Part shown: piece by piece, positions 14,368-28,279 of the stretch
How the letters are laid out: every line of letters starts with the position of its first letter
Position numbering within the stretch: the stretch's first letter is position 1
NCBI GenBank assembly: GCA_027078365.1
Contig: JALWYQ010000001.1
Location: forward strand, 124,001-188,000
Length of the DNA: 64,000 bases
Reading direction: 5' to 3'
Source of the DNA: Phycisphaerae bacterium
GTDB taxonomy: Bacteria; Planctomycetota; Phycisphaerae; Sedimentisphaerales; Sedimentisphaeraceae
The notes under the pieces: generated by a model
What the model was told of the DNA's origin: nothing
Database searches by the model: none
The model's input: the letters and a program-made list of their open reading frames with translations, nothing else
Made by a program: the position numbers and the translations under genes

Positions 14368-15189
14368 TCACACCATACTGAGTTCAAGTTTATGCTTAAT
14401 CTTTTCCCAGCTTGGGATGACGGAATTAAGGAGCTCATAAAACTCCGGGCTATGATTATTGTGTTTTAGATGACACAATTCATGCGTAACAACATAGTCA
14501 ATACACTCTTTAGATGCTTTGACTAGATTTGTATTGAGGGTTACTGTGCCTCTGCTTGAGAGACTACCCCACCTTTTTTGCATTTGCTTAATGGACAGTT
14601 TAGGCTTGCTAATACCAAGGTTATTGAATTTCATCCAACAACGATCCATACTTTGCGCAAATTGAATCTGTGCCTTTTTCAAGTACCATTGATTTAAAAG
14701 TTTCTTGGTTATATCTGGAGTTGGCTTATTCTGGCAAGTGACATAAAAAAAGCCACGAGATAATTTGACGCAATTTTCCGGTCCTTCAGATAGCTTTAAA
14801 CGGTACTGCTTTCCAAGATACAGATGAGTCTCACCGCTGACGTAACATCGATCAGGTGTCTTTGGATTAAATTGATTGAAATAATTCAACTGTCTGAGAA
14901 TCCATCGCGCCCTCTTAATTATCTTTCTTTCTATCAATGTGATGTCTGATTGCAAGGGTGCTTTTACAACAACTGTACTGTCAGGGTGTACGGCAATTTC
15001 CATTGTTTTTCTTTTAACATGAATTAAGTTGTACTCAATTTCCTTTGAGCCATATTTAACCGCTAATTTGCGCGAACCGTCACTAATGTTTTTTGGAACC
15101 ACTAATTTGCACGAATTTGCACGAATTTTTTTTGGGGCTACAGATAAATGTGGATTAACATGTGTTTCTTTCAATTTCTTATTCATCAT
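14368..15189 (-). CDS. YgjP-like metallopeptidase (DUF45) coupled to hsdR
   Basis: A 273-residue protein. From about residue 45 it matches the YgjP family: EIEYNLIHVKRKTMEIAV; KIIKRARWILRQLNYF; KQMQKRWGSLSSRGTVTLN; and the zinc site VVTHELCHLKHNNHSPEFYE near residue 238. The first 45 residues are not family sequence. They include IRANSCKLVVPKNISDGSRK, which is the translation of the island's iteron repeat (15068-15135). The start overlaps the hsdR stop by four bases, so expression is coupled. YgjP-like genes are common next to type I restriction genes, where their role is not established. Confidence 0.85.
   Translation of the reverse strand: MMNKKLKETHVNPHLSVAPKKIRANSCKLVVPKNISDGSRKLAVKYGSKEIEYNLIHVKRKTMEIAVHPDSTVVVKAPLQSDITLIERKIIKRARWILRQLNYFNQFNPKTPDRCYVSGETHLYLGKQYRLKLSEGPENCVKLSRGFFYVTCQNKPTPDITKKLLNQWYLKKAQIQFAQSMDRCWMKFNNLGISKPKLSIKQMQKRWGSLSSRGTVTLNTNLVKASKECIDYVVTHELCHLKHNNHSPEFYELLNSVIPSWEKIKHKLELSMV
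15068..15135 (+). repeat. Iteron repeat copy inside the YgjP-like gene
   Basis: Plus strand shows CACTAAT, GGAACCACTAATTTG and two CACGAATTT-type units in the same order as intergenic copies. It is translated in frame as the extra N-terminal segment of the YgjP-like protein (about residues 18-40). Confidence 0.75.
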
Positions 15190-18100
15190 TTACTACTCGT
15201 CATTCTGAATTTTGCTACCTGTAATACTTTTGCAATAATACCATCCATCTGATCCAGCGACAATTCAATGCCTTTCTCTGTTTTGAGTTCATCGTAGAGG
15301 TAATCATCAATTTCGTTTTCAGTTTGTTTCTGAGCGTCTTCATCGTCCCAAAATTGAACTTTTGTATGCTTTTGAAGAATACCGTGTATTGCAATTGCAG
15401 TGTCGGCGGTGATTGATTCAAGATTTTCTTCACTTAAGTTATATTTTTTAAAGAACGGTTTTAATACACCATAATAGGCCATGGCATCCTCGTTGCCGGA
15501 GAGTTTCTCAGGTATATCATCATGAACTTTACCAACAACTTTATCGCGAACCTCTACTACTTTGTTCAGATAATCTAGCTCAGAGATTCTCTGAGCTCTG
15601 AAATCTTCAATTACTTGCTGGATTAGTTTTGAGAACTTTTCGTAAAACGCAGGATCCTCGTCTAGCTTTTCAGTGATCACCCTCTTTGTAGCGTGTGCAA
15701 TCGTATCTGCTTTTGACGCGGTAGTTTTTGAGCTACCGTATATATCATGGCTTTCCTTGATTTTAATAAAGGAGGCATCGTCAAAGATATTAACTGGTTT
15801 ATTGAGTTGGACAACTTCATTGGCTTGAATATGGGTATCCAACAGTTTCTTGATTTTTGGTTCATAATCTCGGTAATCAACGGCTTCAGCGTAACGCAAC
15901 TTAACAGATGCCTTAAGTGACTGAAATTTTCTAAGATCAGCCTTGTATCTTGACAAAGTTTTCTCGTCAGTTTCGATCAGGAATTTCTCACAAGATAGTG
16001 CGATACCAAGAGTTTTTCCAAACTCCGAAAGGCGGCTGTAAAACTCTTCTCTGATCTCATCATCTGCAAGCAGTACTTCATAAGCTTCTTCATCGTAAGA
16101 ATTCTTAACAGTTTTGAATATATCCCAAAGATCAGAATATCGGCTTGGCAATTTTTCTATTTCGCTATTAATGGAAGTCAGAGTGCCAACTAGATCGGAT
16201 TCATCAAACCCTTCAAATGCGCTGTACATGGTAAGTGCTTTATCTAGCTCACCGAGGACATTTGCGTAGTCGACAATAAATCCGAACTCCTTGCCTTCAT
16301 GGAGACGGTTGATTCGTGCAATTGCCTGAAGTAGCGTATGCTCTCTAAGAATCCTGCACAAATATAGAACCGCATTTCTTGGTGCGTCAAATCCGGTCAA
16401 CAGCTTATCAACGACAATAAGAATTTCAGGGTCACTGCCATGCTTGAATTGATTGATTAGTTGCTTGGTGTACTCTTGCTCACTGCCATAGCGTTTCATC
16501 ATTTTTTGCCAGAATTTTACGACCTCATCGGTTGTCTCGTCATCGATCTCTTCATAGCCTTCACGCATATCCGGTGGCGAGATAACAACCTCTGAACTGA
16601 CAATACCTATTTCATTCAGATAAGCATTATACTTGATCGCGGATACTTTGTTGGGAGCTACCAACTGTGCTTTGAATCCTGTTCCTTGCCAGTTGGAACG
16701 GAAATGTTCACTAATATCGAAGGCTCTCATGTAAATGACCTGATCCGCCTTATTCAACATTTCAGCACGTGCGTATTTTCGTTTGAGATCGGCTTGCTGC
16801 TCTTTGGTCAACCCTTGTGTATGCCTTTCAAACCATAAATCAACAGCCGACTGATTCTGTGTCATCTCTACATGACGACCTTCATACAAAAGCGGGACGA
16901 CAGCACCATCTTCGACTGCCTGTGTGATTGAATAATGGGGTTCTATTAGCTCACCAAATTTGATAAAATTGTTTTTTTCCTTTTTCAAAAGTGGCGTTCC
17001 TGTAAAACCTAAGTAGCAGGCACGAGGAAACATTTGCCTCATCCGTGCCGAAAAAGAGCCAAACTGAGTGCGGTGGCTTTCATCCACCAGAATAAAGATA
17101 TCGGGAGAATTATCTTGATACTTCTTTGCCGCATACGCCTTCTCAAATTTATGGATAAGGGTTGTGATAATGCCAGATTTTTTTTCAGTCACCAGCTCCA
17201 ACAGATTTCTTCCCGAGGTTGCCCGATTAGCTTCAAGACCGCAGGCAGCAAAAGTATTCCCTAGTTGTCTATCTAGGTCATCACGGTCTGTCACAAGAAC
17301 GATACGCGGATTCAAAATTTCAGGATCCAAGGCCAGATTACGTGCGAGTAGTACCATAGTCAGAGATTTTCCCGAACCTTGGGTGTGCCAGATCACACCG
17401 CCTTTTCGTGAACCGGTACTGTCAAAATGTTTTATCCGATTCAGTGTGGACTTAATGACAAAATACTGCTGATAACGGGCAATCTTTTTTGTGCCTCCAT
17501 CAAACACCGTAAACTTCCACGCCAACTCCAAAAGCCTTTCCGGACGGCAGAGGGAAAAAAGAGCTTTGTCCTGCTCGGTTACAAGACGCTCTTTTGAAAC
17601 CACTAATTCACACGAATTATCACTAATGTTTTTTGACTGCATGACCTCAAATGACTTTGGATCTATTTCAACATCAACAGATACATCTACAATCTTTTTT
17701 AATTTTTTAAATTCGTGTCCATTAGTGTCCATTCGTGGTTCTTTCCACACGGACCAAAATTTTGCAGCAGTTCCAGTGGTTGCGTACATGGCACTGTTCT
17801 TGTTTACAGCCATAACTAGTTGGCTATATATGAAGAGCTTCGGAATATAATCATCGTTTTGGTTTCTGATGGATTGTGAGATAGCTTGCTCTACTTCAAT
17901 TTGCGGCGATTTACATTCGATTACACAGAATGGAATGCCGTTAACAAAGAGAACTATATCCGGTCGGGCGGTCTCTGTACTTCGAGCACGCTCAACACTA
18001 AATTCAACCGTCACGTGAAACCTATTGCGGTCGGGATTGCGCCAGTCGATATAGTTTAGATTGAAGCTTTTTGAGTCACCCTCAATGGTTTGTTCCATAG

Positions 18101-18413
18101 CAGTGCCGAGAGTTACAAAATCATAGATGACCTCATTAGTCTTGAGTAGTCCGTCGTATTTGATATTTTTCAGCTTTTGGATAGCCGACTGTACATTCTC
18201 CTCGCTGAAGAGATACTCGCAACCTTTGTATCGAATGCGGTTGATTTTCTTGAGTTGGTTGCGCAGAATATTTTCCAATAAGACATTTGAGCTTCGCCCC
18301 TGACGTTCCTTCAATGCTTCTTCTGGAGAGATATATTCATAGCCCATCGCTACTAGTAGTTGCACTGCTGGTAGCTGGCTTGTTAGTTTTTCATTTGTTT
18401 GAAAATTGCACAT
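15186..18413 (-). CDS. hsdR: Type I restriction endonuclease subunit R
   Basis: A 1075-residue motor/nuclease subunit of normal size. The PD-(D/E)xK nuclease motif is RPDIVLFVNGIPFCVIECKS near residues 145-165. Walker A is TQGSGKS near 343 and the DEAD-like box DESHRTQFG near 443. Helicase domain 2 shows VDKLLTGFDAPRNAVLYL and QAIARINR. With HsdM and HsdS it would cleave unmodified DNA after translocation. Two copies of the island repeat are translated in frame (about residues 220-230 and 260-272) in the variable linker between nuclease and motor domains. The gene is intact. A third repeat copy lies just upstream of its start. Confidence 0.93.
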   Translation of the reverse strand: MCNFQTNEKLTSQLPAVQLLVAMGYEYISPEEALKERQGRSSNVLLENILRNQLKKINRIRYKGCEYLFSEENVQSAIQKLKNIKYDGLLKTNEVIYDFVTLGTAMEQTIEGDSKSFNLNYIDWRNPDRNRFHVTVEFSVERARSTETARPDIVLFVNGIPFCVIECKSPQIEVEQAISQSIRNQNDDYIPKLFIYSQLVMAVNKNSAMYATTGTAAKFWSVWKEPRMDTNGHEFKKLKKIVDVSVDVEIDPKSFEVMQSKNISDNSCELVVSKERLVTEQDKALFSLCRPERLLELAWKFTVFDGGTKKIARYQQYFVIKSTLNRIKHFDSTGSRKGGVIWHTQGSGKSLTMVLLARNLALDPEILNPRIVLVTDRDDLDRQLGNTFAACGLEANRATSGRNLLELVTEKKSGIITTLIHKFEKAYAAKKYQDNSPDIFILVDESHRTQFGSFSARMRQMFPRACYLGFTGTPLLKKEKNNFIKFGELIEPHYSITQAVEDGAVVPLLYEGRHVEMTQNQSAVDLWFERHTQGLTKEQQADLKRKYARAEMLNKADQVIYMRAFDISEHFRSNWQGTGFKAQLVAPNKVSAIKYNAYLNEIGIVSSEVVISPPDMREGYEEIDDETTDEVVKFWQKMMKRYGSEQEYTKQLINQFKHGSDPEILIVVDKLLTGFDAPRNAVLYLCRILREHTLLQAIARINRLHEGKEFGFIVDYANVLGELDKALTMYSAFEGFDESDLVGTLTSINSEIEKLPSRYSDLWDIFKTVKNSYDEEAYEVLLADDEIREEFYSRLSEFGKTLGIALSCEKFLIETDEKTLSRYKADLRKFQSLKASVKLRYAEAVDYRDYEPKIKKLLDTHIQANEVVQLNKPVNIFDDASFIKIKESHDIYGSSKTTASKADTIAHATKRVITEKLDEDPAFYEKFSKLIQQVIEDFRAQRISELDYLNKVVEVRDKVVGKVHDDIPEKLSGNEDAMAYYGVLKPFFKKYNLSEENLESITADTAIAIHGILQKHTKVQFWDDEDAQKQTENEIDDYLYDELKTEKGIELSLDQMDGIIAKVLQVAKFRMTSSK
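17598..17634 (+). repeat. Iteron repeat copy inside hsdR (plus orientation)
   Basis: AAACCACTAATTCACACGAA followed by TTATCACTAAT keeps the CAC(T/G)AAT units. It is read in the hsdR frame as NISDNSCELVVSK. Confidence 0.75.
17708..17746 (-). repeat. Iteron repeat copy inside hsdR (minus orientation)
   Basis: On the minus strand CACGAATGGA-CACTAATGGA-CACGAATTTA gives three units at exact 10-base period. It is read in frame as EPRMDTNGHEF. Confidence 0.8.
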
Positions 18414-18426
18414 GTGTAATCCTTTT

Positions 18427-18488
18427 AACCACTAAAGATGCTAGTTTTTGGAACCACTAATGGACACTAATAAACACTAATTTTTTTT
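18427..18488 (+). repeat. Iteron repeat copy upstream of hsdR
   Basis: A degenerate AACCACTAAAGATGCTAG is followed by the core CACTAATGGA-CACTAATAAA-CACTAATTTT (18455-18484). It sits between the AlbA_2 gene and hsdR, in the opposite orientation to the copies at 23.9-25.5 kb. It is followed by CCATAGAAAACACAGA, which resembles the companion repeat at 23.8 kb. Confidence 0.8.
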
Positions 18489-18559
18489 GACCATAGAAAA
18501 CACAGATGGTTATTTGCTTTATTTTTGTGTGTTCTGTTGTTGTGCTTAACTTTCATAAC

Positions 18560-19912
18560 TTAGCCCTTATTGCTTTCTATTATTTTCCAGTATCCTTCTT
18601 TACGACCACCTACTCGATGCAAGAAACCTTCGGCCTGAAGTTTCTGAATGTTGCGTTGAATAGACCGTTCCGTAACACCAATTTGTTCAGCCAGTTCGGG
18701 AATAGTGATCGATGGAGTTTCTCGACAGGCATCCAGAATCATACCCGACGTTTTCCCGACGTTTTCCCGACGCTTTCCCGACATATCTTCCGAGACAGAC
18801 TGGCCAGAAACGTGAGGTTTCAGTAGTTCTACTGCTACACCTCCGAAGCGTTCTTCAATCACAGGTTGAGGAAGTCCGTAGCGTTTGCACGCTTCAGTGA
18901 TTTTCTCCACGCCACGGCCCCAAGAGTCAATATAGCCAGCCTTATAGCAAATATCTGCAATTAGAGGGTTTCTTGGAAAAGATTCGTGCAGTTGAAACAG
19001 TTTTTCAATCGACAATTCCACTGGTAAAGTACCGGCATTCCACAGCGATATCCGGTCATTCATAACTCTGAGCTGAGTCATACTGCCCATGTAATTTCGA
19101 TGCACCATCGCATTGAGCAACATCTCTCGTAGAGCGGGAACGGGGTATTCAAGTTCTTCAATACGCCTTAGCCCCTCAAAGCGAATTGGCTTGATCAGAA
19201 ACTTTTTCTCTAGTTGCTCCATCACATCACGCAGCATCTGAAACAGATTTCCCTCGCATACTTCCTGAAATCGCATGTCCACTACGCTTTCACCAAATCG
19301 TCCAATTTTTACAAACAGATTGGGGTAGAACTTACTAGGGTCTTTGCCGAACAATACTAAAGCTGCGTTGGTTAATCCGTCGTCGGTGAGCAGATGTAGT
19401 TTTTTCAGAGTGTCTTCAGTGGAAAGCTCAGAAATATCTGGCAAGCGACCGGCGGTAGTAGATTCCCTTTTGAATAGCTCAATGGTCGTATCGTCGATGT
19501 CGTTCAATGTTGCCTTTTCTTCTACCACCCGATCCCAGGTCATGCCCATCTTTTTCAGTAAAAATTCCGTCAGTGCATGGCCTTTCAGCTCCTGCTTTAC
19601 CGAGCCTGACCTCCAGTAGTAGGAACCGCGCAAGGAGATTGGAACCGTTGATGGTTCTACGACAATTTCCAGATAGGTTTTGCCGTCCTCTTCCATCAGG
19701 TTGATGTGCGGCATCAACCCCAGCTGATCACGGATCTTATTCGGTAGATCTTCAAGTAGTTTCTTGGCGTTCGGCAAATCGACGATTTTACCTCGGTCAT
19801 CTTTTCCGATAAAAATCCGCCCACCCTGCGCATTGGCAAAACCACAGATCCATTTCAGATAATCATCTTGCCATGATTGTTTGAATTCGATATTTTGTGA
19901 TTCGGAAGTCAT
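18560..19912 (-). CDS. AlbA_2 (AAA_4) ATP-binding/transcriptional regulator-like protein with C-terminal wHTH
   Basis: About 450 residues. The N-terminal AlbA_2 (Schlafen-like) domain reads NIEFKQSW...WICGFANAQGGRIFIGKDD. The central domain includes LREMLLNAMVHRNY and ITEACKRYGLPQPVIEERFG. The C-terminal winged helix is SITIPELAEQIGVTERSIQR. The start is set at 19912, because ATG there overlaps the herA stop by four bases and gives the usual start MTSESQNIEFKQ. Such proteins often accompany restriction and defence genes. Tight coupling to sir2-herA suggests a third component or regulator of that module. An 11-bp tandem repeat (18742-18782) encodes the SGKRRENVGKTSG linker before the wHTH. Confidence 0.82.
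   Translation of the reverse strand: MTSESQNIEFKQSWQDDYLKWICGFANAQGGRIFIGKDDRGKIVDLPNAKKLLEDLPNKIRDQLGLMPHINLMEEDGKTYLEIVVEPSTVPISLRGSYYWRSGSVKQELKGHALTEFLLKKMGMTWDRVVEEKATLNDIDDTTIELFKRESTTAGRLPDISELSTEDTLKKLHLLTDDGLTNAALVLFGKDPSKFYPNLFVKIGRFGESVVDMRFQEVCEGNLFQMLRDVMEQLEKKFLIKPIRFEGLRRIEELEYPVPALREMLLNAMVHRNYMGSMTQLRVMNDRISLWNAGTLPVELSIEKLFQLHESFPRNPLIADICYKAGYIDSWGRGVEKITEACKRYGLPQPVIEERFGGVAVELLKPHVSGQSVSEDMSGKRRENVGKTSGMILDACRETPSITIPELAEQIGVTERSIQRNIQKLQAEGFLHRVGGRKEGYWKIIESNKG
18742..18782. repeat. 11-bp tandem repeat within the AlbA_2 gene
   Basis: About three and a half copies of the unit CGTCGGGAAAA (minus strand). Because 11 is not a multiple of three, successive copies are read in different frames. 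It encodes the flexible linker before the C-terminal wHTH, and a one-unit change would shift the frame and remove the wHTH. Confidence 0.75.
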
Positions 19913-21588
19913 TTTTGCTGTTTCCTTAAAGATTCCACAGCCTGTTCTATTCCTCTTTCTGACTTTGTCTTTTCCCACTCATCCCAAAAATCAACAGTTG
20001 CACTGTTTGGTTTAACACTTGGTGGATCAACTTTTATGCGGCTCGGTAAAAGAGACGCATCGCCTACGATCAAGCTTTCGCCAATATCAAGTACTGGTAG
20101 CATTTCAGAAAAATCACCGAGATTATCAGGAAACAATCGCTTTATAACATTTTGATCGTCAGGATTTGTTAGTCGCATAGCGATGAAGTTTCCACATTGG
20201 CTCAGTACTGTTTTATTCACATCCGATGGACGTTGACTAATCACAACGAGAGATAATCCATATTTCCGCCCCTCTTTTGCGATTCGCTCGAAACTTGCTA
20301 ACCCTTTTTCCTCCATACTACCTTTTAAGCTTGCCGGAATATAAAGGTGCGCTTCATCGCAAAACAATGCTACAGGATGTCTTTTTTTATCATCCATCCA
20401 TTGTTGAACAGAAAAAACCAAACGACCTATCAAACCAGAAATTAGAGGAAGTATGTCAGAGGGAACTTCTGAAAAATCGATAATCTTAAGTCCTTTTCCA
20501 TTACCGAAATCCAAGAGATTGGTAAGCAATGAGTTGAGCCAATCGTAAGCCAAAAGTTTGTCGTCTGCATTAAATATGAAATTTAAACGTTTATCTGACT
20601 GCTTGCTTTTCAGGCGTTGAATAAAGCGAGTTAACTTTCCATGAAGAGGCCCCTGTCTTTCCGACCTTGCTCCTGGAACCATTTCAGTGTCTTTTTCCCG
20701 TAAAGAAGAAAGAACTTTGCTAATTTCGTATGGAATTGGGCTTTCGACGGTAAAATTATCCAGCACATCTTGTTTATGCTCTGCTTCAAGTTTTTCCTTC
20801 TTGTACTTAATAATTAGATCAAAAAGTGTACGTGATTGATTAGGAGCATTGCTGTCACTGCGATCAAGCAGGAGAGACTCAATTTCCTCATAGGATAAAA
20901 GCCAGTATGGAAGAAAAATAATGTTGTTTTCATCTGGCTTATCAGAAGGTCCGGCAATCTTCAGAAGTGTTGTGTTTGGTAGTTTCTTTAGAGGTTTATA
21001 TTCACCGTGAAGGTCAAAAACCAAACTATTGATTGATTTTAGTTGGGTCGCCTTTTCTAGAATGTTAGCAACCGTCCACGATTTCCCGGAACCAGTTCCT
21101 CCAACGATGACGGCGTGACGTTGAAAAAATTTATTTCCATCCAAATTAGCGTCAGACTCATCAGATATTGTGTATTTCCCTATTTTTAGCGGGTTTTTAC
21201 TGTTAGATGAAATAATGTTCATAAATTCAGAAAGTTCACTACCTTGTAGCAGAAAACAATCAGCATCTATGCTCGGCACAGTGTTAAGCGTTCTCTTGAA
21301 AACATTACGCTCTGTTCCGATCGCATCCATAAGTGTTCCAACAAGATTTACCCGTATCAAATTTTCTACAACTAAATCCGGATCTGACTGATCATCAATT
21401 TTTTCGGAAACAGCTTTTCGCATAATCTTTGAAATCAAACCGATAATTTTCTCACCGGTTTTTGTAGAACGAATTTGAACGATTTGATTGATCTGAACGC
21501 TATTCAACAGTTCTTCATTATCTACTTGTACAGAAATATTTCCTGTATCTACGCTCTGAACTTTTCCAATTAAAATCTCATTACTCAT
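19909..21588 (-). CDS. herA: HerA-like ATPase (DUF87) of a SIR2-HerA type defence module
   Basis: About 559 residues. An N-terminal barrel-like region (EILIGKVQSVDTGNISVQV; GEKIIGLISKI) resembles the HAS-barrel of HerA. Walker A is VGGTGSGKSWTVANIL near residue 166. Walker B is HPVALFCDEAHLYIPAS near 411, followed by RIAKEGRKYGLSLVVISQRP and NKTVLSQCGNFIAMRL, all typical of HerA/FtsK-type hexameric translocases. The ATG at 21588 is preferred over an upstream TTG because the sir2 stop is one base away. SIR2-HerA pairs are known antiphage systems (Nezha type) in which both proteins form a complex that depletes NAD or degrades DNA. Here the pair sits inside an hsd operon. Confidence 0.87.
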   Translation of the reverse strand: MSNEILIGKVQSVDTGNISVQVDNEELLNSVQINQIVQIRSTKTGEKIIGLISKIMRKAVSEKIDDQSDPDLVVENLIRVNLVGTLMDAIGTERNVFKRTLNTVPSIDADCFLLQGSELSEFMNIISSNSKNPLKIGKYTISDESDANLDGNKFFQRHAVIVGGTGSGKSWTVANILEKATQLKSINSLVFDLHGEYKPLKKLPNTTLLKIAGPSDKPDENNIIFLPYWLLSYEEIESLLLDRSDSNAPNQSRTLFDLIIKYKKEKLEAEHKQDVLDNFTVESPIPYEISKVLSSLREKDTEMVPGARSERQGPLHGKLTRFIQRLKSKQSDKRLNFIFNADDKLLAYDWLNSLLTNLLDFGNGKGLKIIDFSEVPSDILPLISGLIGRLVFSVQQWMDDKKRHPVALFCDEAHLYIPASLKGSMEEKGLASFERIAKEGRKYGLSLVVISQRPSDVNKTVLSQCGNFIAMRLTNPDDQNVIKRLFPDNLGDFSEMLPVLDIGESLIVGDASLLPSRIKVDPPSVKPNSATVDFWDEWEKTKSERGIEQAVESLRKQQK

Positions 21589-21589
21589 A

Positions 21590-22552
21590 TTACAAGATCT
21601 CCATAAATTTATTGAGTTGCCAATAATCATCGTCAATTATCAGCGTTTCTTTGGATTCATCTTTCCCTGTTTTTATTAGAACTGATGTTTGTCCTGTGGT
21701 TTCACTTTCTTGCAGCAAAATATATTTCTGAGCATTTTTTAGTTCATCGCGACAACTTTGGGTGATTTTCTTTGTGATCAATACTAAAGGTGTTCCACTA
21801 TTGACCTTTTCTTTGATCTTTGGTGTCAAGTGTTCATCATTGAACCCAAAGCCCACGACAAGAAAACTTGATGCGTTATTTATGAGGTTGTCTGATTTCT
21901 GAATTAAATCACGATACGGAGTTTTGTATGCTTCTTGGTATTTATTTTTCCCAGGAGAAATAATAACTGGCTCAGAGCTTTCGCAATCCATCATTAGATA
22001 TCGAACACTGCTGTCAACTCGAAACCAGCTAAGAGAGCCATGTACCTTTATCAGGTTTGTAATATTTTTATCGGTGAAAAGGTCTCCATTGAATATATTA
22101 AATTCACGCTCTCCAAAGCCGTCTGTGAATGGGATACCGTAAAATCCCATCACATGTTCAATGACTCGGTCATAATTGGTCGTAATAATGTTTACAACTT
22201 GAGGATGCACGGATCGGATTTTCTCAATCATGTTTTTTATGCTATCAAACGTGTCCGTCTCGCCATTAACCAATTTACGACGTACTTTGGCATCCGCATT
22301 ATTGACAGTATTCCAAATTATTCTTCTTATTTCAGGCATTTGATCGTTGTATTTAGCTTTCCCCAATTCAGTCTCCAAATTTTCATTAGTTTGGTTAAAA
22401 TTGTGCAATTTATTTTTCAGTGTATTATTCAGATCTTCCATTGTCGGCAACCCAAACGGCACTGTTGCCCCTGCCCCCCAGATAATAACAGGTGGATTCT
22501 TCAGAAATGTTTGAATTGTTGAAAAAGTCTTTTCTTTTGATTGATCACTCAT
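21590..22552 (-). CDS. SIR2-like NADase-family defence protein
   Basis: A 320-residue protein with the SIR2_2 pattern: the nucleotide loop VIIWGAGATVPFGLPTMEDL near residue 18, IITTNYDRVIEHVMGF (the conserved TTNYD), LIKVHGSLSW (the catalytic-type His) and LVVGFGFNDEHL. Bacterial SIR2-like defence proteins hydrolyse NAD+ upon phage infection. Its start codon shares one base with the hsdS stop (TAATG) and its stop is one base from herA, so hsdS, sir2 and herA are translationally linked. The NADase activity is family knowledge, not shown by the sequence. Confidence 0.86.
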   Translation of the reverse strand: MSDQSKEKTFSTIQTFLKNPPVIIWGAGATVPFGLPTMEDLNNTLKNKLHNFNQTNENLETELGKAKYNDQMPEIRRIIWNTVNNADAKVRRKLVNGETDTFDSIKNMIEKIRSVHPQVVNIITTNYDRVIEHVMGFYGIPFTDGFGEREFNIFNGDLFTDKNITNLIKVHGSLSWFRVDSSVRYLMMDCESSEPVIISPGKNKYQEAYKTPYRDLIQKSDNLINNASSFLVVGFGFNDEHLTPKIKEKVNSGTPLVLITKKITQSCRDELKNAQKYILLQESETTGQTSVLIKTGKDESKETLIIDDDYWQLNKFMEIL

Positions 22553-23748
22553 TATTCATACTTCCTTACTACATTTGGCTTAATTCTCCACTCACCTGTC
22601 AACAGACGCTGCATCAGCCCGCGTTTTTGGGTTTTGTATTTTTCTGTGAGTTGCTTCAACAGGTCGATTTCCTGCTGGGCGTCGGATAAGGCTTCAGCGA
22701 TTTGCTTTTGTTCTTCAATAGATGGAAGAGGCATTTTAACTTCACTAAAATGCGGAAATTTAAGATTCCATGTATCTGAGGTTAACCCCTGCGAATATCT
22801 ATAAAATCGATGAATCATAAATGGCATCTTGAACAGATATGCGACAAACTGCGGGTACAGTTTCTCTCCCGGGATACAAATTGTATAGGCAGGGCTCACG
22901 ATCCCCTCCATTGTTGAAAGGGCGGAGACTCCTTGCCACATCCTCATCGTGTTATAGCCAATATCTCCAGGACAAATCCGAAGATATTTAGATTTATCCT
23001 TGTTGGATGTGTCTTTCCTGTTCGTGTCTTCACGAGGGATCACCCCTTCGCCATTTGTTATGGAAAGAAGTGGTAAATCATCTCGCTTGGTTTCTTTACG
23101 TTCCTTGAAAAGTGATTTTGTCCTTACCTGTTTCCATTTACCTTCTACGGTAGGCACATAAATCAGATCATTTAGTAGTCGTTTAAACCGTTTTTCTTTT
23201 ACCTGAATCAGCTGTTCAGTTTTTTCGATGGCCTCATCCCAGGTGGAGAGTAGATCTGCAATGGCTTTTTGCTCTGGGAGTGGGGGAAAAGGTATCTTGA
23301 CTTTGTCGTAAGTTTCAGTTGTCAGTCCAAACCTTGTGATCCCATTTGCGTATCTATAAAAGTCATACGATATTCTTGGATGCGTCAGTGAAAGGGATAG
23401 AAATCTTCCATCTACATGTTTCTTTGGTCTCAATATTGTTAAATGATATCCGCAAAGCAATTTTTTTCTAACACTTTGGATATATGTTGGTATTCCAATG
23501 TCATCAGCGCTTTCAGAATCTTTTGTTATTACAACATCGTTAGGGCAAAGCGAAAATCGATCAATTTCCCCTTGTTTAGCAGTTGCTTTCATAAACTGCA
23601 TATTTTTAGTAATTATAGAGTTGTAATATACATCAGTATAGTTGCACAAAACCACTGGTATTTCGTCTGGCATTGTTTTTTTGTCGACTGGACTGGTGAT
23701 TACTTTTGTTATAGCACTTATTGCTTTTTCTGAAAAGATTTTACTCAT
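22552..23748 (-). CDS. hsdS: Type I restriction-modification specificity subunit (full length)
   Basis: About 398 residues with the usual two-fold layout. Target-recognition domain 1 spans about 1-150, with conserved helix 1 at PLPEQKAIADLLSTWDEAIE. Domain 2 spans about 195-345, with helix 2 at PSIEEQKQIAEALSDAQQEI and the closing KRGLMQRLLTGEWRI. It would fix the recognition sequence of the HsdM/HsdR complex. The start at 23748 is chosen for its Shine-Dalgarno (GGGGAGG seven bases upstream). It is separated from hsdM by three small cassette-like genes and immediately followed by sir2. Confidence 0.9.
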   Translation of the reverse strand: MSKIFSEKAISAITKVITSPVDKKTMPDEIPVVLCNYTDVYYNSIITKNMQFMKATAKQGEIDRFSLCPNDVVITKDSESADDIGIPTYIQSVRKKLLCGYHLTILRPKKHVDGRFLSLSLTHPRISYDFYRYANGITRFGLTTETYDKVKIPFPPLPEQKAIADLLSTWDEAIEKTEQLIQVKEKRFKRLLNDLIYVPTVEGKWKQVRTKSLFKERKETKRDDLPLLSITNGEGVIPREDTNRKDTSNKDKSKYLRICPGDIGYNTMRMWQGVSALSTMEGIVSPAYTICIPGEKLYPQFVAYLFKMPFMIHRFYRYSQGLTSDTWNLKFPHFSEVKMPLPSIEEQKQIAEALSDAQQEIDLLKQLTEKYKTQKRGLMQRLLTGEWRIKPNVVRKYE

Positions 23749-23814
23749 CGCCAAACCTCCCCTGTAATTTTGCGGAGTTTTGAATTATGAAGACTAAGTA
23801 CCAAACTCATTCCC

Positions 23815-23884
23815 AACCATAGAACACACGGAATACACAGAAAAAAACAAATAATCTTTTTCATGTTGTTCTGTGTATTCCGCA
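23815..23884. repeat. Companion inverted repeat
   Basis: CGGAATACACAGAA (near 23829-23842) and its near-complement TTCTGTGTATTCCG (near 23869-23882) face each other across about 26 bases. They follow CCATAGAACACA. Shorter versions (CTGTATGCCCCATGG near 24251; ATGTGTATTCCATGG near 24568) precede other iteron copies, so the two elements travel together. Confidence 0.65.
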
Positions 23885-23889
23885 GTTCA

Positions 23890-23925
23890 AATAATTCGTG
23901 AAAATTAGTGTCCATTAGTGGTTCC
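23890..23925 (-). repeat. Iteron repeat copy at the 3' end of the DinD-like gene
   Basis: On the minus strand GGAACCACTAATGGACACTA continues as ATTTTCACGAATTATT: three CAC(T/G)AAT units spaced ten bases. The DinD-like frame ends inside it as GTTNGH-stop. Confidence 0.85.
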
Positions 23926-24186
23926 CTCCTTTGGAAAGCTTAGAGCCCTTGATCTACCATTCTGGACCATTTTACTGACGTCGGTAAAATGGTTCTCCAC
24001 AGGAACATTGGAATTTTCGCAGGCTATCTTAGCTTTACCAATAACCTCTACAAAATTCTGCCATTTTGTATACCCAAGTTTTTCCATCAAATCCCGGGCA
24101 TACCAAAATTCTGCTGTTTCCCCCGAAACATGTTGGACAATAGTATCAAATGCGTTTGTCAGTCTGACAATGGTATTTTTATCCAT
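23905..24186 (-). pseudogene. Truncated DinD/BRO-N-like gene ending in a repeat
   Basis: A 93-residue frame. Residues 1-70 match the start of DNA-damage-inducible protein D-like (BRO-N related) proteins: GETAEFWYARDLMEKLGYTK, WQNFVEVIGKAKIACENSNV and ENHFTDVSKMV. Full-length relatives are roughly three times longer. After KMVQNGRSRALSFPKE the frame enters the iteron repeat and ends GTTNGH-stop, so the C-terminal part has been lost and replaced. The start has a GGGGGC upstream. It could still make a short protein, but is most simply a deletion derivative. Confidence 0.7.
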
Positions 24187-24187
24187 T

Positions 24188-24232
24188 TGTTAGCCCCCAG
24201 TTACTAATCCCGTCGAATTTGACGGGATTAAA
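24188..24232. repeat. 5' cassette block with perfect palindrome
   Basis: TAATCCCGTC (24205-24214) and GACGGGATTA (24221-24230) form a perfect 10-bp inverted repeat around GAATTT, just upstream of the DinD-like start. A diverged version (TAAATCCGTCGAATTTGA) occupies the same position before the KilA-N gene (about 25415-25460), including the CCATTTGTTA junction at the start codon. Confidence 0.65.
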
Positions 24233-24269
24233 CACCATTTCCATGTTGTTCTGTATGCCCCATGGTTCA

Positions 24270-24305
24270 AATAATTCGTGAAAATTAGTGTTCATTAGTG
24301 GTTCC
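24270..24305 (-). repeat. Iteron repeat copy between DinD-like and DUF1016 genes
   Basis: Same core as the copy at 23890-23925, with one change (GAACAC for GGACAC), in the same orientation. It lies 20 bases past the stop of the DUF1016 remnant. Confidence 0.85.
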
Positions 24306-24325
24306 TTTACTTTTCTTTGCAGGTC

Positions 24326-24544
24326 TCATTTGTTCAATTGTGACACCAGTGGTGACACAATCTCAAAATCAGGAAATTGCTCCGCAGATTGCATGTTGAT
24401 ACGTTTCTCAACTTGCCAATAGGTTAGTGTAATGACACTGTTTACTGCTATTACAGCCTGATGCTTTCCCTGTTCAATAAGTTTGCGCAGATCATTTAAC
24501 AGGGCGTTTGTGTTATTATCAAATAATTGATTACTATCACTCAT
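24326..24544 (-). pseudogene. Internally deleted DUF1016 (YhcG-like) nuclease gene
   Basis: A 72-residue frame. LLNDLRKLIEQGKHQAVIAV and LTYWQVEKRINMQ match the N-terminal domain of DUF1016/YhcG proteins (usually over 300 residues, with a C-terminal PD-(D/E)xK domain). Directly after this the frame jumps to AEQFPDFEIVSPLVSQL, a stretch that in relatives lies some 25-30 residues further on, and stops. The middle of the N-terminal domain and the whole nuclease domain are missing. ATG at 24544 is preferred; an upstream extension (MNHGIHIKTWKE) is translated repeat. Confidence 0.75.
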
Positions 24545-24585
24545 CGCTAATTCTTTCCATGTTTTTATGTGTATTCCATGGTTCA

Positions 24586-24621
24586 AATAATTCGTGAAAA
24601 TTAGTGTCCATTAGTGGTTCC
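24586..24621 (-). repeat. Iteron repeat copy at the 3' end of the KilA-N gene
   Basis: The same 36-bp core as at 23890-23925. The KilA-N frame ends in it as RGNH-stop, a different reading frame from the DinD-like and half-HsdS ends. Confidence 0.85.
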
Positions 24622-25414
24622 CTCTCAGCTGTTTCGTGGTTCTATCCTTCACCAGCAATTTCATTTGCTGAATAGCCGTCTGGTTCAGTCGTTGCAATCG
24701 TTCAGGCTGGCTTAATCCCTCCTGAATAAAATGAGCATTCAAATTCTCCAGATTAGCTAGGCATACCAGTTGAGAGACATTGGCGAAATCTCGAATATTA
24801 CCTTTTTCACCAGGGTTTTCATCACGCCACTGCTTCGCGGTTTTGCCAAAGAGTGCCATATTAAGAATATCTGCTTCGGAAGCGTAAACCAGATTGATCT
24901 GTTCTTTGCCGAGTTCCTGCGGAATCAGGTGTTCTTTAATGGCGTCGGTATGAATGCGGTAGTTGATTTTGGTGAGTTGACGCCTGACGTCCCAGCCAAG
25001 CTGCTTAAGCTCTTCATTTTTAAGCCGTTGAAATTCTTTAACAAGATAAATTTTAAACTCTGCACTAATCCACATACCAAATTCAAAAGCAATGTCCGGA
25101 TGTGCATAGGTGCCTCCGTATCTTCCTGCTTTTGCCTGTAAACCGATGGCATTAGTTTTTGCTACCCACTCTTTGACACTTATCTTGTAGCTATTAAGCC
25201 CTGCCTGACTTTTAATTGTGGCGAATTCGCCATAATTAAAATCGGGGTTATGAACTCGTTCCCATATCCCAAGGTATTCAACAGTGTTACGATTTCGAAG
25301 CCAATCTGTGATGAAAAAATTTCCATCTTTTGAACGTAGCATGTCGGTAAGAGAGATGTAATTCTCTTTGGTTATGCGAATTTCTTCGTTCAAAACGGTG
25401 ATTGTTTTAGCCAT
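24611..25414 (-). CDS. KilA-N domain protein
   Basis: A 267-residue protein. The N-terminal KilA-N domain is visible in ENYISLTDML, WLRNRNTVEYLGIWERVHNP and GRYGGTYAHPDIAFEFGMWI. The C-terminal half is helical and includes LVYASEADILNMALFGKTAK and QERLQRLNQTAIQQMKLLV-type sequence. KilA-N is a DNA-binding domain common in phage and mobile-element proteins, and similar genes occur in restriction loci. Its last residues (RGNH) are encoded by an iteron repeat copy, and its 5' flank shares a block with the DinD-like gene. The start has GGGAG eleven bases upstream. Confidence 0.85.
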   Translation of the reverse strand: MAKTITVLNEEIRITKENYISLTDMLRSKDGNFFITDWLRNRNTVEYLGIWERVHNPDFNYGEFATIKSQAGLNSYKISVKEWVAKTNAIGLQAKAGRYGGTYAHPDIAFEFGMWISAEFKIYLVKEFQRLKNEELKQLGWDVRRQLTKINYRIHTDAIKEHLIPQELGKEQINLVYASEADILNMALFGKTAKQWRDENPGEKGNIRDFANVSQLVCLANLENLNAHFIQEGLSQPERLQRLNQTAIQQMKLLVKDRTTKQLRGNH

Positions 25415-25495
25415 TTGTTAACTCCCAATTTCTAAATCCGTCGAATTTGAAGAATTTAAAATGTCTTTTTGCTTCGTTCTTTTTGCGGTTCTCAA

Positions 25496-25531
25496 AATAA
25501 TTCGTGAAAATTAGTGTACATTAGTGGTTAC
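25496..25531 (-). repeat. Iteron repeat copy at the 3' end of hsdM
   Basis: The same core, with GGTAACC for GGAACC and GTACAC for GGACAC. The hsdM stop codon TAA is the first in-frame codon of the repeat. Confidence 0.85.
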
Positions 25532-27123
25532 CTCTGAATCTGCTGAAGCTTCTCAGCCATCTTACCCCGCACCTCTGCTAGCTCTTTCTCTAATGCGTCA
25601 ATCTCCTTTTGAACCTCATCAATATCAATGGGTTCTTCTTCCTCAAAGGTATCCACATAACGGGGGATATTGAGGTTAAAATCATTTTCCTTGATCTCTT
25701 CAAATTCGGCTACATGGGCGTATTTTTCTACCTCCTTACGCTCCTTGTAAGTGCGCATAATCTTTTCAATATGTTCTTCGCTGAGCGTGTTCTGATTTTT
25801 AGCTGATACAAACTCCCTACTGGCATCAATAAACAATACACTGGATTCGTGTTTATTTGTGTCCATTCGTACTTGTTCTCTTCCCCGATCAAAGACCAAA
25901 ATTGCCACCGGAATATTGGTGGTCGGGAAGAGATTGCCCGGCAGTCCAATCACTGCATCAAGTAAATTTTCCTCTATCATCTTCCGGCGAATGCGACCTT
26001 CGGCTGCGCCTCGGAACAGAACGCCATGGGGAACTACAACGGCAACTCGTCCCTCTTTTTCAAGGGCGGTTTCCACCATATGGCTAATAAAAGCCCAGTC
26101 TCCTTTGCTTTTAGGTGGCACCCCGCGCCAGAAGCGGTTGTACTGATCACTCTCGGCATTTTCAGCGCCCCATTTGTCTAATGAGAATGGTGGATTGGCC
26201 ACCACGCAGTTGAATTTCATGAGCCGATCATTTTCCACCAACAGTGGACTGTTCAGAGTGTCGCCCCATTCAATCCTGGCACTGTCAAAGCTGTGCAGGA
26301 ACATGTTCATTCGGCAAAGCGCCCATGTGCTACCGTTGGATTCCTGTCCGAAGAGGGCAAAGTTACGTTTTTCGCGATCATCTTTAGCATTTCTGGCCAC
26401 CTCACGAGCAGCCTGAACCAAAAGACCACCCGATCCACAGGCCGGATCGCAGATACGATCTCCCGGTTTTGGGCCTGCCAGCTTTGCTACCAGTTCGGTT
26501 ACCTTCAGTGGAGTAAAGAACTCTCCAGCCTTCTTTCCAGAATCAGAGGCAAAACGCTCAATCAGGTAAATATAGGTGTTACCGATTACATCCTCGGATA
26601 CGAAGCTAGGCTTCATGTTGAGCTGAGGTTTATGAAAATCCTCTAGCAGTTGTTTCAGGCGGCGGTTGCGGTCTTTGGTTTTACCGAGATTGGCTTCACT
26701 GTTGAAATCGATGTTACGAAAAACACCTTCAAGCTTGCTCTTGTTACTTTCTTCAATGTGGTCGAGGACAATGTTGATCAGTTCACCGATATTTGCAGTG
26801 GATCGGCGTTCATAAAGGCTGTAATAGGTGGCAGGGAACTCGTCGAGAACCGTCTCTTCGCCTGTTTTATCATTTTTTTCGGTGAGTTTCACCACGGGGA
26901 GAACAAAACGCTCACGCTTCAGCTTGCGGCGAATACGGACATCATCATCCCCATACTGCTTCCGGTAGGCCTCGTAATGATCCAGCCACACATCGGATAT
27001 ATACTTTAAAAACAGCATCACAAGGATGTAGTCTTTGTACTGCGCTGGATCAACAACACCTCTGAAGGTGTCACATGCCGCCCAGGCCGCGTTGTTGATG
27101 TCTTTTTGATCAATCTTGTTCAT
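25528..27123 (-). CDS. hsdM: Type I restriction-modification methyltransferase subunit M
   Basis: About 531 residues. The helical N-terminal domain starts DINNAAWAACDTFRGVVDPA. The SAM motif DPACGSGGLL is near residue 228 and the N6-adenine catalytic motif NPPF (CVVANPPFSLDKWG) near 308. A C-terminal coiled coil reads EEEPIDIDEVQKEIDALEKE. It methylates adenine in the HsdS-defined site. The ATG at 27123 has AAGGAG seven bases upstream. Near residue 420 the segment REQVRMDTNKHESSVLFID contains translated iteron repeat in a normally variable loop. Upstream lies a 46-bp tandem repeat. Confidence 0.93.
   Translation of the reverse strand: MNKIDQKDINNAAWAACDTFRGVVDPAQYKDYILVMLFLKYISDVWLDHYEAYRKQYGDDDVRIRRKLKRERFVLPVVKLTEKNDKTGEETVLDEFPATYYSLYERRSTANIGELINIVLDHIEESNKSKLEGVFRNIDFNSEANLGKTKDRNRRLKQLLEDFHKPQLNMKPSFVSEDVIGNTYIYLIERFASDSGKKAGEFFTPLKVTELVAKLAGPKPGDRICDPACGSGGLLVQAAREVARNAKDDREKRNFALFGQESNGSTWALCRMNMFLHSFDSARIEWGDTLNSPLLVENDRLMKFNCVVANPPFSLDKWGAENAESDQYNRFWRGVPPKSKGDWAFISHMVETALEKEGRVAVVVPHGVLFRGAAEGRIRRKMIEENLLDAVIGLPGNLFPTTNIPVAILVFDRGREQVRMDTNKHESSVLFIDASREFVSAKNQNTLSEEHIEKIMRTYKERKEVEKYAHVAEFEEIKENDFNLNIPRYVDTFEEEEPIDIDEVQKEIDALEKELAEVRGKMAEKLQQIQR
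25848..25878 (-). repeat. Diverged iteron repeat copy inside hsdM
   Basis: On the minus strand TACGAATGGA-CACAAATAAA-CACGAATCCA keeps three units at 10-base period. It is read in frame as RMDTNKHES. Confidence 0.7.
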
Positions 27124-27140
27124 GTGATACTCCTTAATTT

Positions 27141-27313
27141 TAACCACTAATGGATACTAATTTCCACGAATATATTAAGTGCTTGTGAATCACTAATGGA
27201 CACTAATTTCCACGAATATATTAAGTGCTTGTGAATCACTAATGGACACTAATTTGCACGAATATGTTAAAGTTTTCGTAAACCATGAAAGGGTACTAAT
27301 TTTTACTAATATT
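27141..27313 (+). repeat. 46-bp tandem repeat built on the iteron core, upstream of hsdM
   Basis: Three copies begin at 27145, 27191 and 27237, exactly 46 bases apart. Each has CACTAATGGA-CACTAATTTC-CACGAATATA followed by TTAAGTGCTTGTGAAT, then a decayed tail with TACTAATTTTTACTAAT. It fills the space between the GxxExxY gene and the hsdM start and is inverted relative to the neighbouring single copies. Confidence 0.9.
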
Positions 27314-27315
27314 TT

Positions 27316-27699
27316 TTATAGAACGATTCGTTCCCATTCTAGGGTGGCATGTTTGAAATTTAGTAAAATCCCAACTCGAAGGCCGGTAATCTTTAAGTAA
27401 TTAATAATTTGTGCCCTTTCGTTATTTCCGATTTTCTCAATTGTTTTTAAATCCACAATGATTTTATCAAATACCAGCAGATCAGGAATATACTCACCTA
27501 CTTTTACCGATTTGTAAACGACTTCATATCTAGGTTGCTGAGTATAAGGAATCCCATTTTGTCGAAACTCTACGACCATCGCATTTTCATAGGGTTTTTC
27601 GAACAATCCATGCCCCAGCGTATTTAATACCTCCATGGCACACCCTACAATCTGATAAACCTCATTCTTGAGGAATAATTCGTGTTCATTAGTGTCCAT
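27316..27699 (-). CDS. GxxExxY protein
   Basis: A 127-residue protein of the GxxExxY family: VYQIVGCAMEVLNTLGHGLF, then EKPYENAMVVEF, IPYTQQPRYEVVYKSVKVGE and IPDLLVFDKIIVDLKTIEKI. The VGEYIPDLLV...IIVDLK pattern resembles a PD-(D/E)xK nuclease core. No biochemical role is established that I know of. Its start codon and first residues (MDTNEHELF) are translated iteron repeat, and its start lies 11 bases inside the end of the half-HsdS gene. It is read in a different frame of the same repeat that ends the half-HsdS gene. Confidence 0.85.
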   Translation of the reverse strand: MDTNEHELFLKNEVYQIVGCAMEVLNTLGHGLFEKPYENAMVVEFRQNGIPYTQQPRYEVVYKSVKVGEYIPDLLVFDKIIVDLKTIEKIGNNERAQIINYLKITGLRVGILLNFKHATLEWERIVL

Positions 27700-27709
27700 T
27701 AGTGGTTCC
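27674..27709 (-). repeat. Iteron repeat copy supplying both a stop and a start codon
   Basis: On the minus strand CACTAATGGA-CACTAATGAA-CACGAATTAT. Read in one frame it ends the half-HsdS gene (GTTNGH-stop); in another it gives ATG and MDTNEHE of the GxxExxY gene. Confidence 0.88.
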
Positions 27710-28279
27710 TCTGGTCAGTTGCATTAGCACTGTCGAAATGTATTGCTCTCGTTTTTCCGCTAGCGAGCTTAATATGATTTGTTCCTTAGCGGATAACGAT
27801 GCCAGCTCAACGATATTTTTTTGTTGTTCCAAAGGTGGTAGCAAAACTTCCAGGTCTTCAATTGTTTGCTTGCTGATCATTTTTTGAACTGTACCCATGG
27901 CTCTACTGGTCAGAAAAGCTTGGACATCTCGCTGATTGATGTACCAGTTCAGATATTCAGGTAAAATCTTATCCGGCTTTATTACCCTTATCCTTAATAA
28001 AGGAGCGGCAACAATAGCCTTACTCGGATCTTCGAGAAGAATCGTTGCAGTGGTTAGAGATCCACGCGATCTGAAAACCAAATCACCTTTCTTCGCAAAG
28101 TGATGTTCTTTTACGGCTTTCATATCAACCTTTACTAGGTTATCGCAGTCGACCGTGTTGTTATCGAGAAGGTCTTTCATCTGAATAACCGCAACTTCAC
28201 CACGTTGAGAGGTTTCGAGGCGGGACCGAAACGAGTATCCCATCTGTATGGTTGCCAGGTTTTTTATTTTCATCTTCAT
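27689..28279 (-). CDS. Half-length type I specificity subunit (single TRD)
   Basis: About 196 residues with a single target-recognition domain (LATIQMGYSFRSRLETS...EHHFAKKGDLVFRSRGSL) and a single conserved helix (LPPLEQQKNIVELASLSAKE), half the size of the full HsdS in the same operon. Half-length S subunits can work as dimers in some systems. The start at 28279 has AAGGTG five bases upstream. The last residues GTTNGH come from an iteron repeat, so the original 3' end is uncertain. It is the first gene of the island operon. Confidence 0.82.
   Translation of the reverse strand: MKMKIKNLATIQMGYSFRSRLETSQRGEVAVIQMKDLLDNNTVDCDNLVKVDMKAVKEHHFAKKGDLVFRSRGSLTTATILLEDPSKAIVAAPLLRIRVIKPDKILPEYLNWYINQRDVQAFLTSRAMGTVQKMISKQTIEDLEVLLPPLEQQKNIVELASLSAKEQIILSSLAEKREQYISTVLMQLTRGTTNGH

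What the first reader, a model, noticed from the sequence alone, without database searches (positions are those of the whole stretch)
18560..23748. SIR2-HerA type module nested in a type I restriction operon, with an AlbA_2/HTH gene as a possible third component
hsdS, sir2, herA and albA2 are joined by a TAATG overlap, a one-base gap and an ATGA overlap, so they act as one translational unit, followed by hsdR. SIR2-HerA pairs are known antiphage systems. The continuous coupling to hsdS and to an AlbA_2 protein suggests that restriction and NAD-depletion type immunity are made together, or that the AlbA_2 protein regulates or completes the complex. This three-gene version in an hsd operon may be undescribed.
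Basis: partly seen in the sequence, partly recalled or inferred. Interest (0 to 1): 0.78.

Follow-up and report, generated by a model that had tools for sequence, protein, structure and literature searches.

The report
SIR2-HerA defence pair inside restriction operon
A known two-gene anti-phage suicide system (SIR2-HerA) has been slotted into the middle of a DNA-restriction operon, at a spot where many different defence genes come and go; the neighbouring AlbA_2 gene is a separate guest of that spot and not a third part of the system.

Summary
In detail: hsdS, sir2, herA and albA2 are joined by a 1-nt overlap (TAATG), a 1-nt gap and a 4-nt overlap (ATGA). hsdR follows 146 nt later. SIR2 and HerA match PADLOC's SIR2-HerA models over full length, and the NADase Asn126/His171 are invariant in 32 of 32 relatives.

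The "AlbA_2 third component" idea is not supported. SIR2-HerA occurs without AlbA_2 at every close relative whose downstream flank could be read. Where it is nested between hsdS and hsdR elsewhere, the gene after herA is Abi_C, Fic, an unknown protein or nothing. The closest AlbA_2 relatives sit hsdS-albA2-hsdR without SIR2-HerA. Base composition also differs (GC3 47% against 31-36%).

In 59 hsd operons of the phylum sample, the hsdS-hsdR junction is occupied in 46, by TIR/SLOG, Fic, Abi, RhuM, GmrSD, AlbA_2 or SIR2-HerA genes. The nearest orthologous operons (HsdR 86% and 79% identical) hold a TIR cassette and nothing.

SIR2-HerA entered this slot repeatedly (one clade rejected, pAU 4e-6). 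Embedding at this site is already described for DarTG2, TgvAB and PrrC. This is a new member of a known kind. A PrrC-like "restriction guard" role is possible but untested.

The parts
22552..23748 (-). hsdS, specificity subunit (398 aa, two Methylase_S stretches); upstream edge of the slot
   Evidence: Pfam PF01420 9.5e-21, PADLOC Specificity_I 1e-69; ATG start at 23748
21590..22552 (-). sir2, SIR2_2-type NADase (320 aa), catalytic Asn126 and His171 intact
   Evidence: PDLC04092 484.7 bits full length; N126, D128, H171, S173 identical in 32/32 relatives; PDB SIR2-HerA chains 8w9l and 8j4u matched
19909..21588 (-). herA, DUF87 ATPase (559 aa), Walker A GGTGSGKS and Walker B ALFCDEAH intact
   Evidence: PDLC04105 759.5 bits full length; alignment A2; PDB SIR2-HerA complex chains 8wld, 8woc and 8su9
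18560..19912 (-). albA2: SLFN_AlbA_2 + HATPase_c_4 (RecG-C-like) + C-terminal winged helix (450 aa); independent slot gene
   Evidence: Pfam; AF2 model pLDDT 87, best PDB match 3lmm, then Schlafen N-domains and MarR-type wHTH; 41-43% identical genes in hsdS-hsdR slots without SIR2-HerA
15186..18413 (-). hsdR, restriction/translocase subunit (1075 aa); downstream edge of the slot
   Evidence: Pfam HSDR_N, SWI2_SNF2, T1R_D3
25528..27129 (-). hsdM, N6-adenine methylase subunit
   Evidence: Pfam N6_Mtase 3e-107, HsdM_N; 88% identical in L098
27689..28279 (-). half-length HsdS (one Methylase_S domain) ahead of hsdM, conserved in orthologous operons
   Evidence: PF01420 2.9e-12; present ahead of hsdM in L098-L101, L104, L106, L107, L109
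14368..15189 (-). YgjP-type metallopeptidase, overlaps hsdR by 4 nt; usual tail gene of this hsd family
   Evidence: PF01863 4.6e-55; follows hsdR in most operons
23905..25414 (-). second cargo site (hsdM-hsdS gap): KilA-N protein 24611-25414 (PDC-S22), DUF1016-like fragment 24326-24586, DinD/BRO-like fragment 23905-24186, each followed by the same repeat
   Evidence: the two fragments were identified by reading the sequence only

Best explanation
This is a type I restriction-modification operon whose hsdS-hsdR junction is a variable cargo slot, here filled by two unrelated guests. The first is a complete SIR2-HerA (Nezha-type) pair. HerA hexamers and SIR2 subunits form a complex that, when triggered by infection, hydrolyses NAD+ and stops phage growth. 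The second is an AlbA_2-HATPase-wHTH gene that usually lives in hsd operons by itself, most likely as a nucleic-acid-binding regulator of the operon. Shown by sequence: the gene order, the intact catalytic motifs, the variability of the slot and repeated entry of SIR2-HerA into it. Inferred from homologues: NAD+ depletion, complex formation, and that restriction and SIR2-HerA are made from one transcript but act as separate, complementary layers.
For: Junctions. Full-length PADLOC and PDB matches and invariant N126/H171. SIR2-HerA pairs without AlbA_2 on seven plasmids, at the Bacteroidota and other relatives and in the window's own phylum. SIR2-HerA directly after hsdS in L013, L016, L021, L025 and L094, followed by Abi_C, nothing, Fic, contig end and an unknown 350-aa gene. 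Host hsd genes of these cases are mostly unrelated (HsdR 25-35% identical, except L013/L016 70% and L021/L094 47%). SIR2 tree: at least 5 changes of the nested state, single clade rejected with pAU 3.9e-6. Empty slot in the L099 orthologue (HsdR 79%) and a TIR/SLOG cassette in L098 (HsdR 86%). AlbA_2 in hsdS-albA2-hsdR without SIR2-HerA: L057, L119, L120, with ATGA on both sides in L119 and L120. Census: 46 of 59 junctions occupied, AlbA_2 family in 8, SIR2-HerA in 2, both in 1. Precedents: TgvAB protects independently of HsdR nuclease activity (PMC11411939); DarTG2 at hsdS^hsdR (PMC12255303); SIR2 herA alone suffices in V. cholerae (PMC11559045).
Against: No expression or phage data exist for this locus. 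TgvAB alone protected 10-100 times less than the whole T1RM cluster (PMC11411939), so embedding may matter beyond linkage. Two loci carry an AlbA_2-family gene within about 3 kb of a divergent SIR2-HerA pair near other R-M genes (L060, L067), so some loose association cannot be excluded. The AlbA_2 function is only inferred from domains. Some gene contexts were cut by contig ends.
Confidence: 0.77

Rival explanations
1. Restriction guard: SIR2-HerA in the hsdS-hsdR slot is held inactive by, or senses the state of, the type I enzyme, and fires when a phage anti-restriction protein blocks it, as PrrC does inside EcoprrI.
For: Embedded in an hsd locus like prrC, which is invariably hsd-linked and is activated when EcoprrI is inhibited by T4 Stp (PMC3874168; PMC12707154). 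SIR2-HerA entered the slot several times, always directly after hsdS. L013 and L016 kept hsdM-hsdS-sir2-herA-hsdR together while diverging to 70% HsdR identity.
Against: The same SIR2-HerA subfamily also stands alone in most relatives, so it needs no R-M partner. The host hsd families are mostly unrelated, which argues against a specific contact. The slot takes many unrelated guests, and TgvAB in the same kind of slot works without HsdR nuclease activity (PMC11411939).
Confidence: 0.12
2. AlbA_2 is a third component of SIR2-HerA: it completes or regulates the complex.
For: ATGA overlap with herA. Loose proximity of divergent AlbA_2 and SIR2-HerA genes in L060 and L067.
Against: No other SIR2-HerA of this subfamily with a readable flank is followed by AlbA_2. 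The closest AlbA_2 genes lie in hsd operons without SIR2-HerA. GC3 is 0.468 against 0.355 and 0.311. No association in the census (Fisher p = 0.32; little power). ATGA overlaps are a general feature of this slot.
Confidence: 0.05
3. Plain defence-island accretion: the position inside hsd is neutral linkage with no selected benefit from co-expression.
For: Slot contents are very varied, include a transposase-like gene (Y1_Tnp), and decayed fragments lie in the hsdM-hsdS gap.
Against: Same-strand orientation and tight coupling at both edges in most cases (33 of 47 and 34 of 47 within 30 nt). Many guests are defence-like families, and the slot recurs across hsd families.
Confidence: 0.2

Closest known systems
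SIR2-HerA / Nezha antiphage system (V. cholerae, E. coli; PDB 8w9l, 8wld, 8su9)
   Same: Two adjacent genes, SIR2_2 NADase then HerA DUF87 ATPase; catalytic Asn and His and Walker motifs kept; PADLOC full-length match (PMC11559045)
Defence genes embedded in type I R-M operons: DarTG2 at hsdS^hsdR in EPEC RRDM (PMC12255303), TgvAB in V. cholerae VPI-2 (PMC11411939), PrrC in EcoprrI (PMC12707154), rlo genes of C. jejuni (PMC5183652)
   Same: Unrelated defence gene or gene pair placed among the hsd genes; RRDM also has a metallopeptidase gene downstream
   Different: Cargo is SIR2-HerA plus AlbA_2; no paper found that describes SIR2-HerA there
hsd-linked AlbA_2 genes (hsdS-albA2-hsdR)
   Same: Same domain order AlbA_2 + HATPase_c_4 + C-terminal wHTH-like domain, 41-43% identical, in the same slot (L057, L119, L120)
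   Different: In the window sir2-herA separates hsdS from albA2

Membership tests
SIR2-HerA (Nezha) | Adjacent SIR2-domain and HerA genes in one operon | tested here: met
   21590-22552 and 19909-21588, 1-nt gap; PDLC04092 and PDLC04105 full length
SIR2-HerA (Nezha) | NADase catalytic Asn and His in SIR2 | tested here: met
   TTNYD N126 and VHGS H171, identical in 32/32 relatives; they match by motif the N168/H227 tested in V. cholerae (PMC11559045)
SIR2-HerA (Nezha) | HerA Walker A and B motifs | tested here: met
   GGTGSGKS and ALFCDEAH columns conserved in alignment A2
SIR2-HerA (Nezha) | SIR2-HerA supramolecular complex and NAD+ depletion on infection | not testable with these tools
   Needs biochemistry; only sequence homology was tested
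Three-component SIR2-HerA-AlbA_2 system (proposed) | AlbA_2 co-conserved with SIR2-HerA | tested here: not met
   Absent at other readable SIR2-HerA loci of the subfamily; AlbA_2 found in slots without SIR2-HerA
Defence system embedded at hsdS^hsdR | Unrelated defence gene(s) on the same strand between hsdS and hsdR, with an orthologous operon lacking them | tested here: met
   Empty in L099, TIR/SLOG cassette in L098
PrrC-like restriction guard | Obligate linkage to an hsd locus | tested here: not met
   Most relatives of this SIR2-HerA are outside hsd operons
PrrC-like restriction guard | Activation on inhibition of the R-M enzyme | not testable with these tools
   Needs an anti-restriction protein assay

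The most novel reading that the evidence does not exclude
SIR2-HerA copies that enter the hsdS-hsdR slot act as NAD-depleting guards of the type I enzyme. They are kept quiet while restriction works and released when a phage anti-restriction protein disables it, so the slot is a general socket for restriction-guard effectors (PrrC, SIR2-HerA, TIR, Fic, Abi).
Probability: 0.12. Interest if true: 0.78.

Novelty: new member of a known kind. Interest (0 to 1): 0.4.

Why it matters
It places SIR2-HerA among the systems that repeatedly settle between hsdS and hsdR. It also gives closely related operons with different slot contents (empty, TIR/SLOG, SIR2-HerA + AlbA_2), a natural set for asking whether the slot is mere linkage, shared expression or a guard of restriction. 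It corrects a guess that would have added a false third subunit to SIR2-HerA, and warns that ATGA/TAATG coupling in this slot says little about physical partnership.

Tried and rejected
AlbA_2 as third component: rejected on synteny, composition and census. Integration at the tmRNA 3' end beside the operon (28456): no second copy of the tmRNA end was found in the window, and no integrase was noticed among the ORFs read between 13.7 and 28.3 kb, so this is not shown. Searching Bacteroidota for more nested copies by sampling 395 genomes gave only the seed, too sparse to help. The Fisher test of AlbA_2 and SIR2-HerA co-residence (p = 0.32) has little power with two SIR2-HerA slots. Promoter and terminator scans inside the operon gave no more than chance. 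The bioRxiv paper on embedded defences (10.1101/2024.01.29.577857) is not held, so whether it already lists SIR2-HerA at this site could not be checked.

Full report
Check of the observation. The genes are on the minus strand in the order hsdM (27129-25528), cargo remnants, hsdS (23748-22552), sir2 (22552-21590), herA (21588-19909), albA2 (19912-18560), hsdR (18413-15186), YgjP-type peptidase (15189-14368). The three junctions are as described: TAATG, a one-base gap, and ATGA. hsdR is 146 nt further on, and that gap holds one copy of a dispersed repeat. PADLOC gives SIR2 484.7 bits and HerA 759.5 bits over full length. Solved SIR2-HerA complexes are matched by both proteins. The catalytic Asn126 and His171 are identical in 32 of 32 SIR2 relatives.

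Is AlbA_2 part of the system? On seven plasmids carrying relatives (HerA 51-54% identical to the window's) the pair stands without AlbA_2; six show no hsd genes nearby and one (L006) has a methyltransferase and a helicase gene in the neighbourhood, but not around the pair. A genome-wide scan with the window's HerA gave 19 loci, 18 of them true SIR2-HerA relatives. None of those whose downstream flank could be read has AlbA_2 next to herA. Five further genomes of the window's phylum with HerA relatives (six loci) have none directly joined either; L092 has a weak AlbA_2-like hit 395 nt downstream. The reverse search with AlbA_2 is telling. The closest hsd-borne relatives, 41-43% identical, lie between hsdS and hsdR without SIR2-HerA: L057, and L119 and L120, where both junctions are ATGA overlaps. 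AlbA_2 has third-position GC of 0.468 against 0.355 for sir2 and 0.311 for herA. The AlbA_2 model (pLDDT 87) matches DIP2311 (3lmm) best, then Schlafen N-domains and MarR-type winged helices, which fits a nucleic-acid-binding regulator but proves nothing. Two loci, L060 and L067, have AlbA_2-family genes within about 3 kb of divergent SIR2-HerA pairs near other R-M genes. This is the only other hint of association, and it is loose.

Nesting in hsd operons. SIR2-HerA follows hsdS directly in the window, L013 (Salegentibacter), L016 (Crocinitomicaceae), L021 (Pasteurella atlantica), L025 (Urechidicola, contig ends in herA) and L094 (a genome of the window's phylum). The gene between herA and hsdR is AlbA_2, Abi_C, none, Fic, unreadable, and an unknown 350-aa protein respectively. 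L094 carries a different SIR2 subfamily (PDLC04086 instead of PDLC04092). The host enzymes are mostly unrelated: HsdR 25-35% identical between hosts, except L013/L016 (70%) and L021/L094 (47%). On the SIR2 tree the nested state needs five changes, and a single nested clade (without L094) is rejected, pAU 3.9e-6. Three more pairs lie beside enzymes read as type IIG (L014, L017, L092); that label rests on blast similarity and reading, not on a domain scan.

The slot itself. From a search with the window's HsdR in 294 genomes of its phylum, 59 operons had a readable hsdS-hsdR junction. In 46 the gap exceeds 300 nt. The hsdM-hsdS gap exceeds 300 nt in 25 of 52 readable cases, against 40 of 52 for hsdS-hsdR. 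Slot proteins include AlbA_2/HATPase_c_4 (6 and 8 of 66 scanned, window excluded), Abi_C (7), Fic (4), RhuM (3), GmrSD (3), DUF4268 (3), ThsB-type TIR (3), Abi_2, DUF1016 and others. In 33 of 47 cases the first slot gene lies within 30 nt of hsdS, and in 34 of 47 the last lies within 30 nt of hsdR, so tight coupling is a property of the slot. The two nearest orthologous operons are informative. L099 (HsdR 79%, HsdM 84%) has hsdS overlapping hsdR with nothing between. L098 (HsdR 86%, HsdM 88%) has three TIR genes and a SLOG/TIR gene there. Neither carries the dispersed repeats.

How it most likely works. By homology, SIR2 and HerA form a complex that depletes NAD+ in infected cells. In V. cholerae the pair is enough when the rest of its island is deleted, and Asn/His mutants or loss of HerA abolish or weaken protection (PMC11559045). 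Being made from the hsd operon it would add an abortive layer to restriction. In the V. cholerae VPI-2 island the embedded TgvAB pair protects independently of HsdR nuclease activity, although better within its whole cluster (PMC11411939). PrrC, embedded in EcoprrI, is activated when a phage peptide inhibits the enzyme (PMC3874168, PMC12707154), so a guard role for SIR2-HerA is conceivable. Against it, most relatives live outside hsd operons.

Novelty. Embedding at hsdS^hsdR is described: DarTG2 with the remark that the site may be a recombination hotspot for defence systems (PMC12255303), TgvAB (compared there with RloF between hsdR and hsdS, PMC11411939), PrrC within EcoprrI, and the C. jejuni rlo ORFs (PMC5183652). 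A preprint on embedded defences exists but is not held. I found no paper describing SIR2-HerA there. I therefore rate it a new member of a known kind. The repeated entry of SIR2-HerA into the slot and the slot census are the new observations.

Limits. The phylum census is a sample seeded by one HsdR, gene finding was mechanical, HsdS detection is approximate, and genome names of the G handles are withheld. No statistical null was computed for slot placement beyond the tree test.

Noticed in passing
window 15095-27709 (copies at 15097, 17598, 17709, 18450, 23889, 24269, 24585, 25496, 27142, 27188, 27234, 27674): A 30-45 nt repeat (GGAACCACTAATGGACACTAAT..CACGAATT) occurs between and inside the genes of this operon. 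All 13 genome matches to its core lie in the operon, in a 2.29 Mb assembly; a sample of 294 phylum genomes holds only two isolated one-mismatch hits outside this genome, and close orthologous operons lack it.
   Followed up: partly
window HsdR about 17598-17742, HsdM about 25841-25876, YgjP N-terminus about 15058-15142: Copies of the repeat lie in frame inside coding sequence (peptides MDTNxHE and NSCxLVV..) and replace or lengthen segments relative to L098 and L099, resembling palindromic elements that insert into genes.
   Followed up: partly
window 27689-28279; L098-L101, L104, L106, L107, L109: A half-length HsdS (about 200 aa, one target-recognition domain) precedes hsdM in most operons of this hsd family, besides the full hsdS. 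Its role is not obvious.
   Followed up: partly
window 14368-15189 and most loci: A YgjP-type metallopeptidase gene follows hsdR in nearly all operons of this family; the EPEC RRDM island also ends in a metallopeptidase gene (PMC12255303).
   Followed up: partly
window 23905-25414: The hsdM-hsdS gap holds a KilA-N gene (PDC-S22) and fragments of DUF1016-like and DinD/BRO-like genes, each followed by the same repeat: a second, decaying cargo site.
   Followed up: partly
window 27316-27699: GxxExxY (PDDEXK_3) protein whose start codon and first residues (MDTNEHE) are encoded by a copy of the repeat.
   Followed up: no
L098:6302-10048: Thoeris-like cassette (three TIR genes plus a SLOG/TIR 689-aa protein) in the hsdS-hsdR slot of the closest orthologous operon.
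   Followed up: partly
window 28456-28807: tmRNA gene (tag GVNNYAMAA) directly upstream of the operon; no duplicated tmRNA end was found in the window.
   Followed up: partly
L060:2556-9652 and L067:3981-9631: AlbA_2-family genes within about 3 kb of divergent SIR2-HerA pairs, L060 beside a ResIII-type restriction gene and an Eco57I-type methylase.
   Followed up: partly
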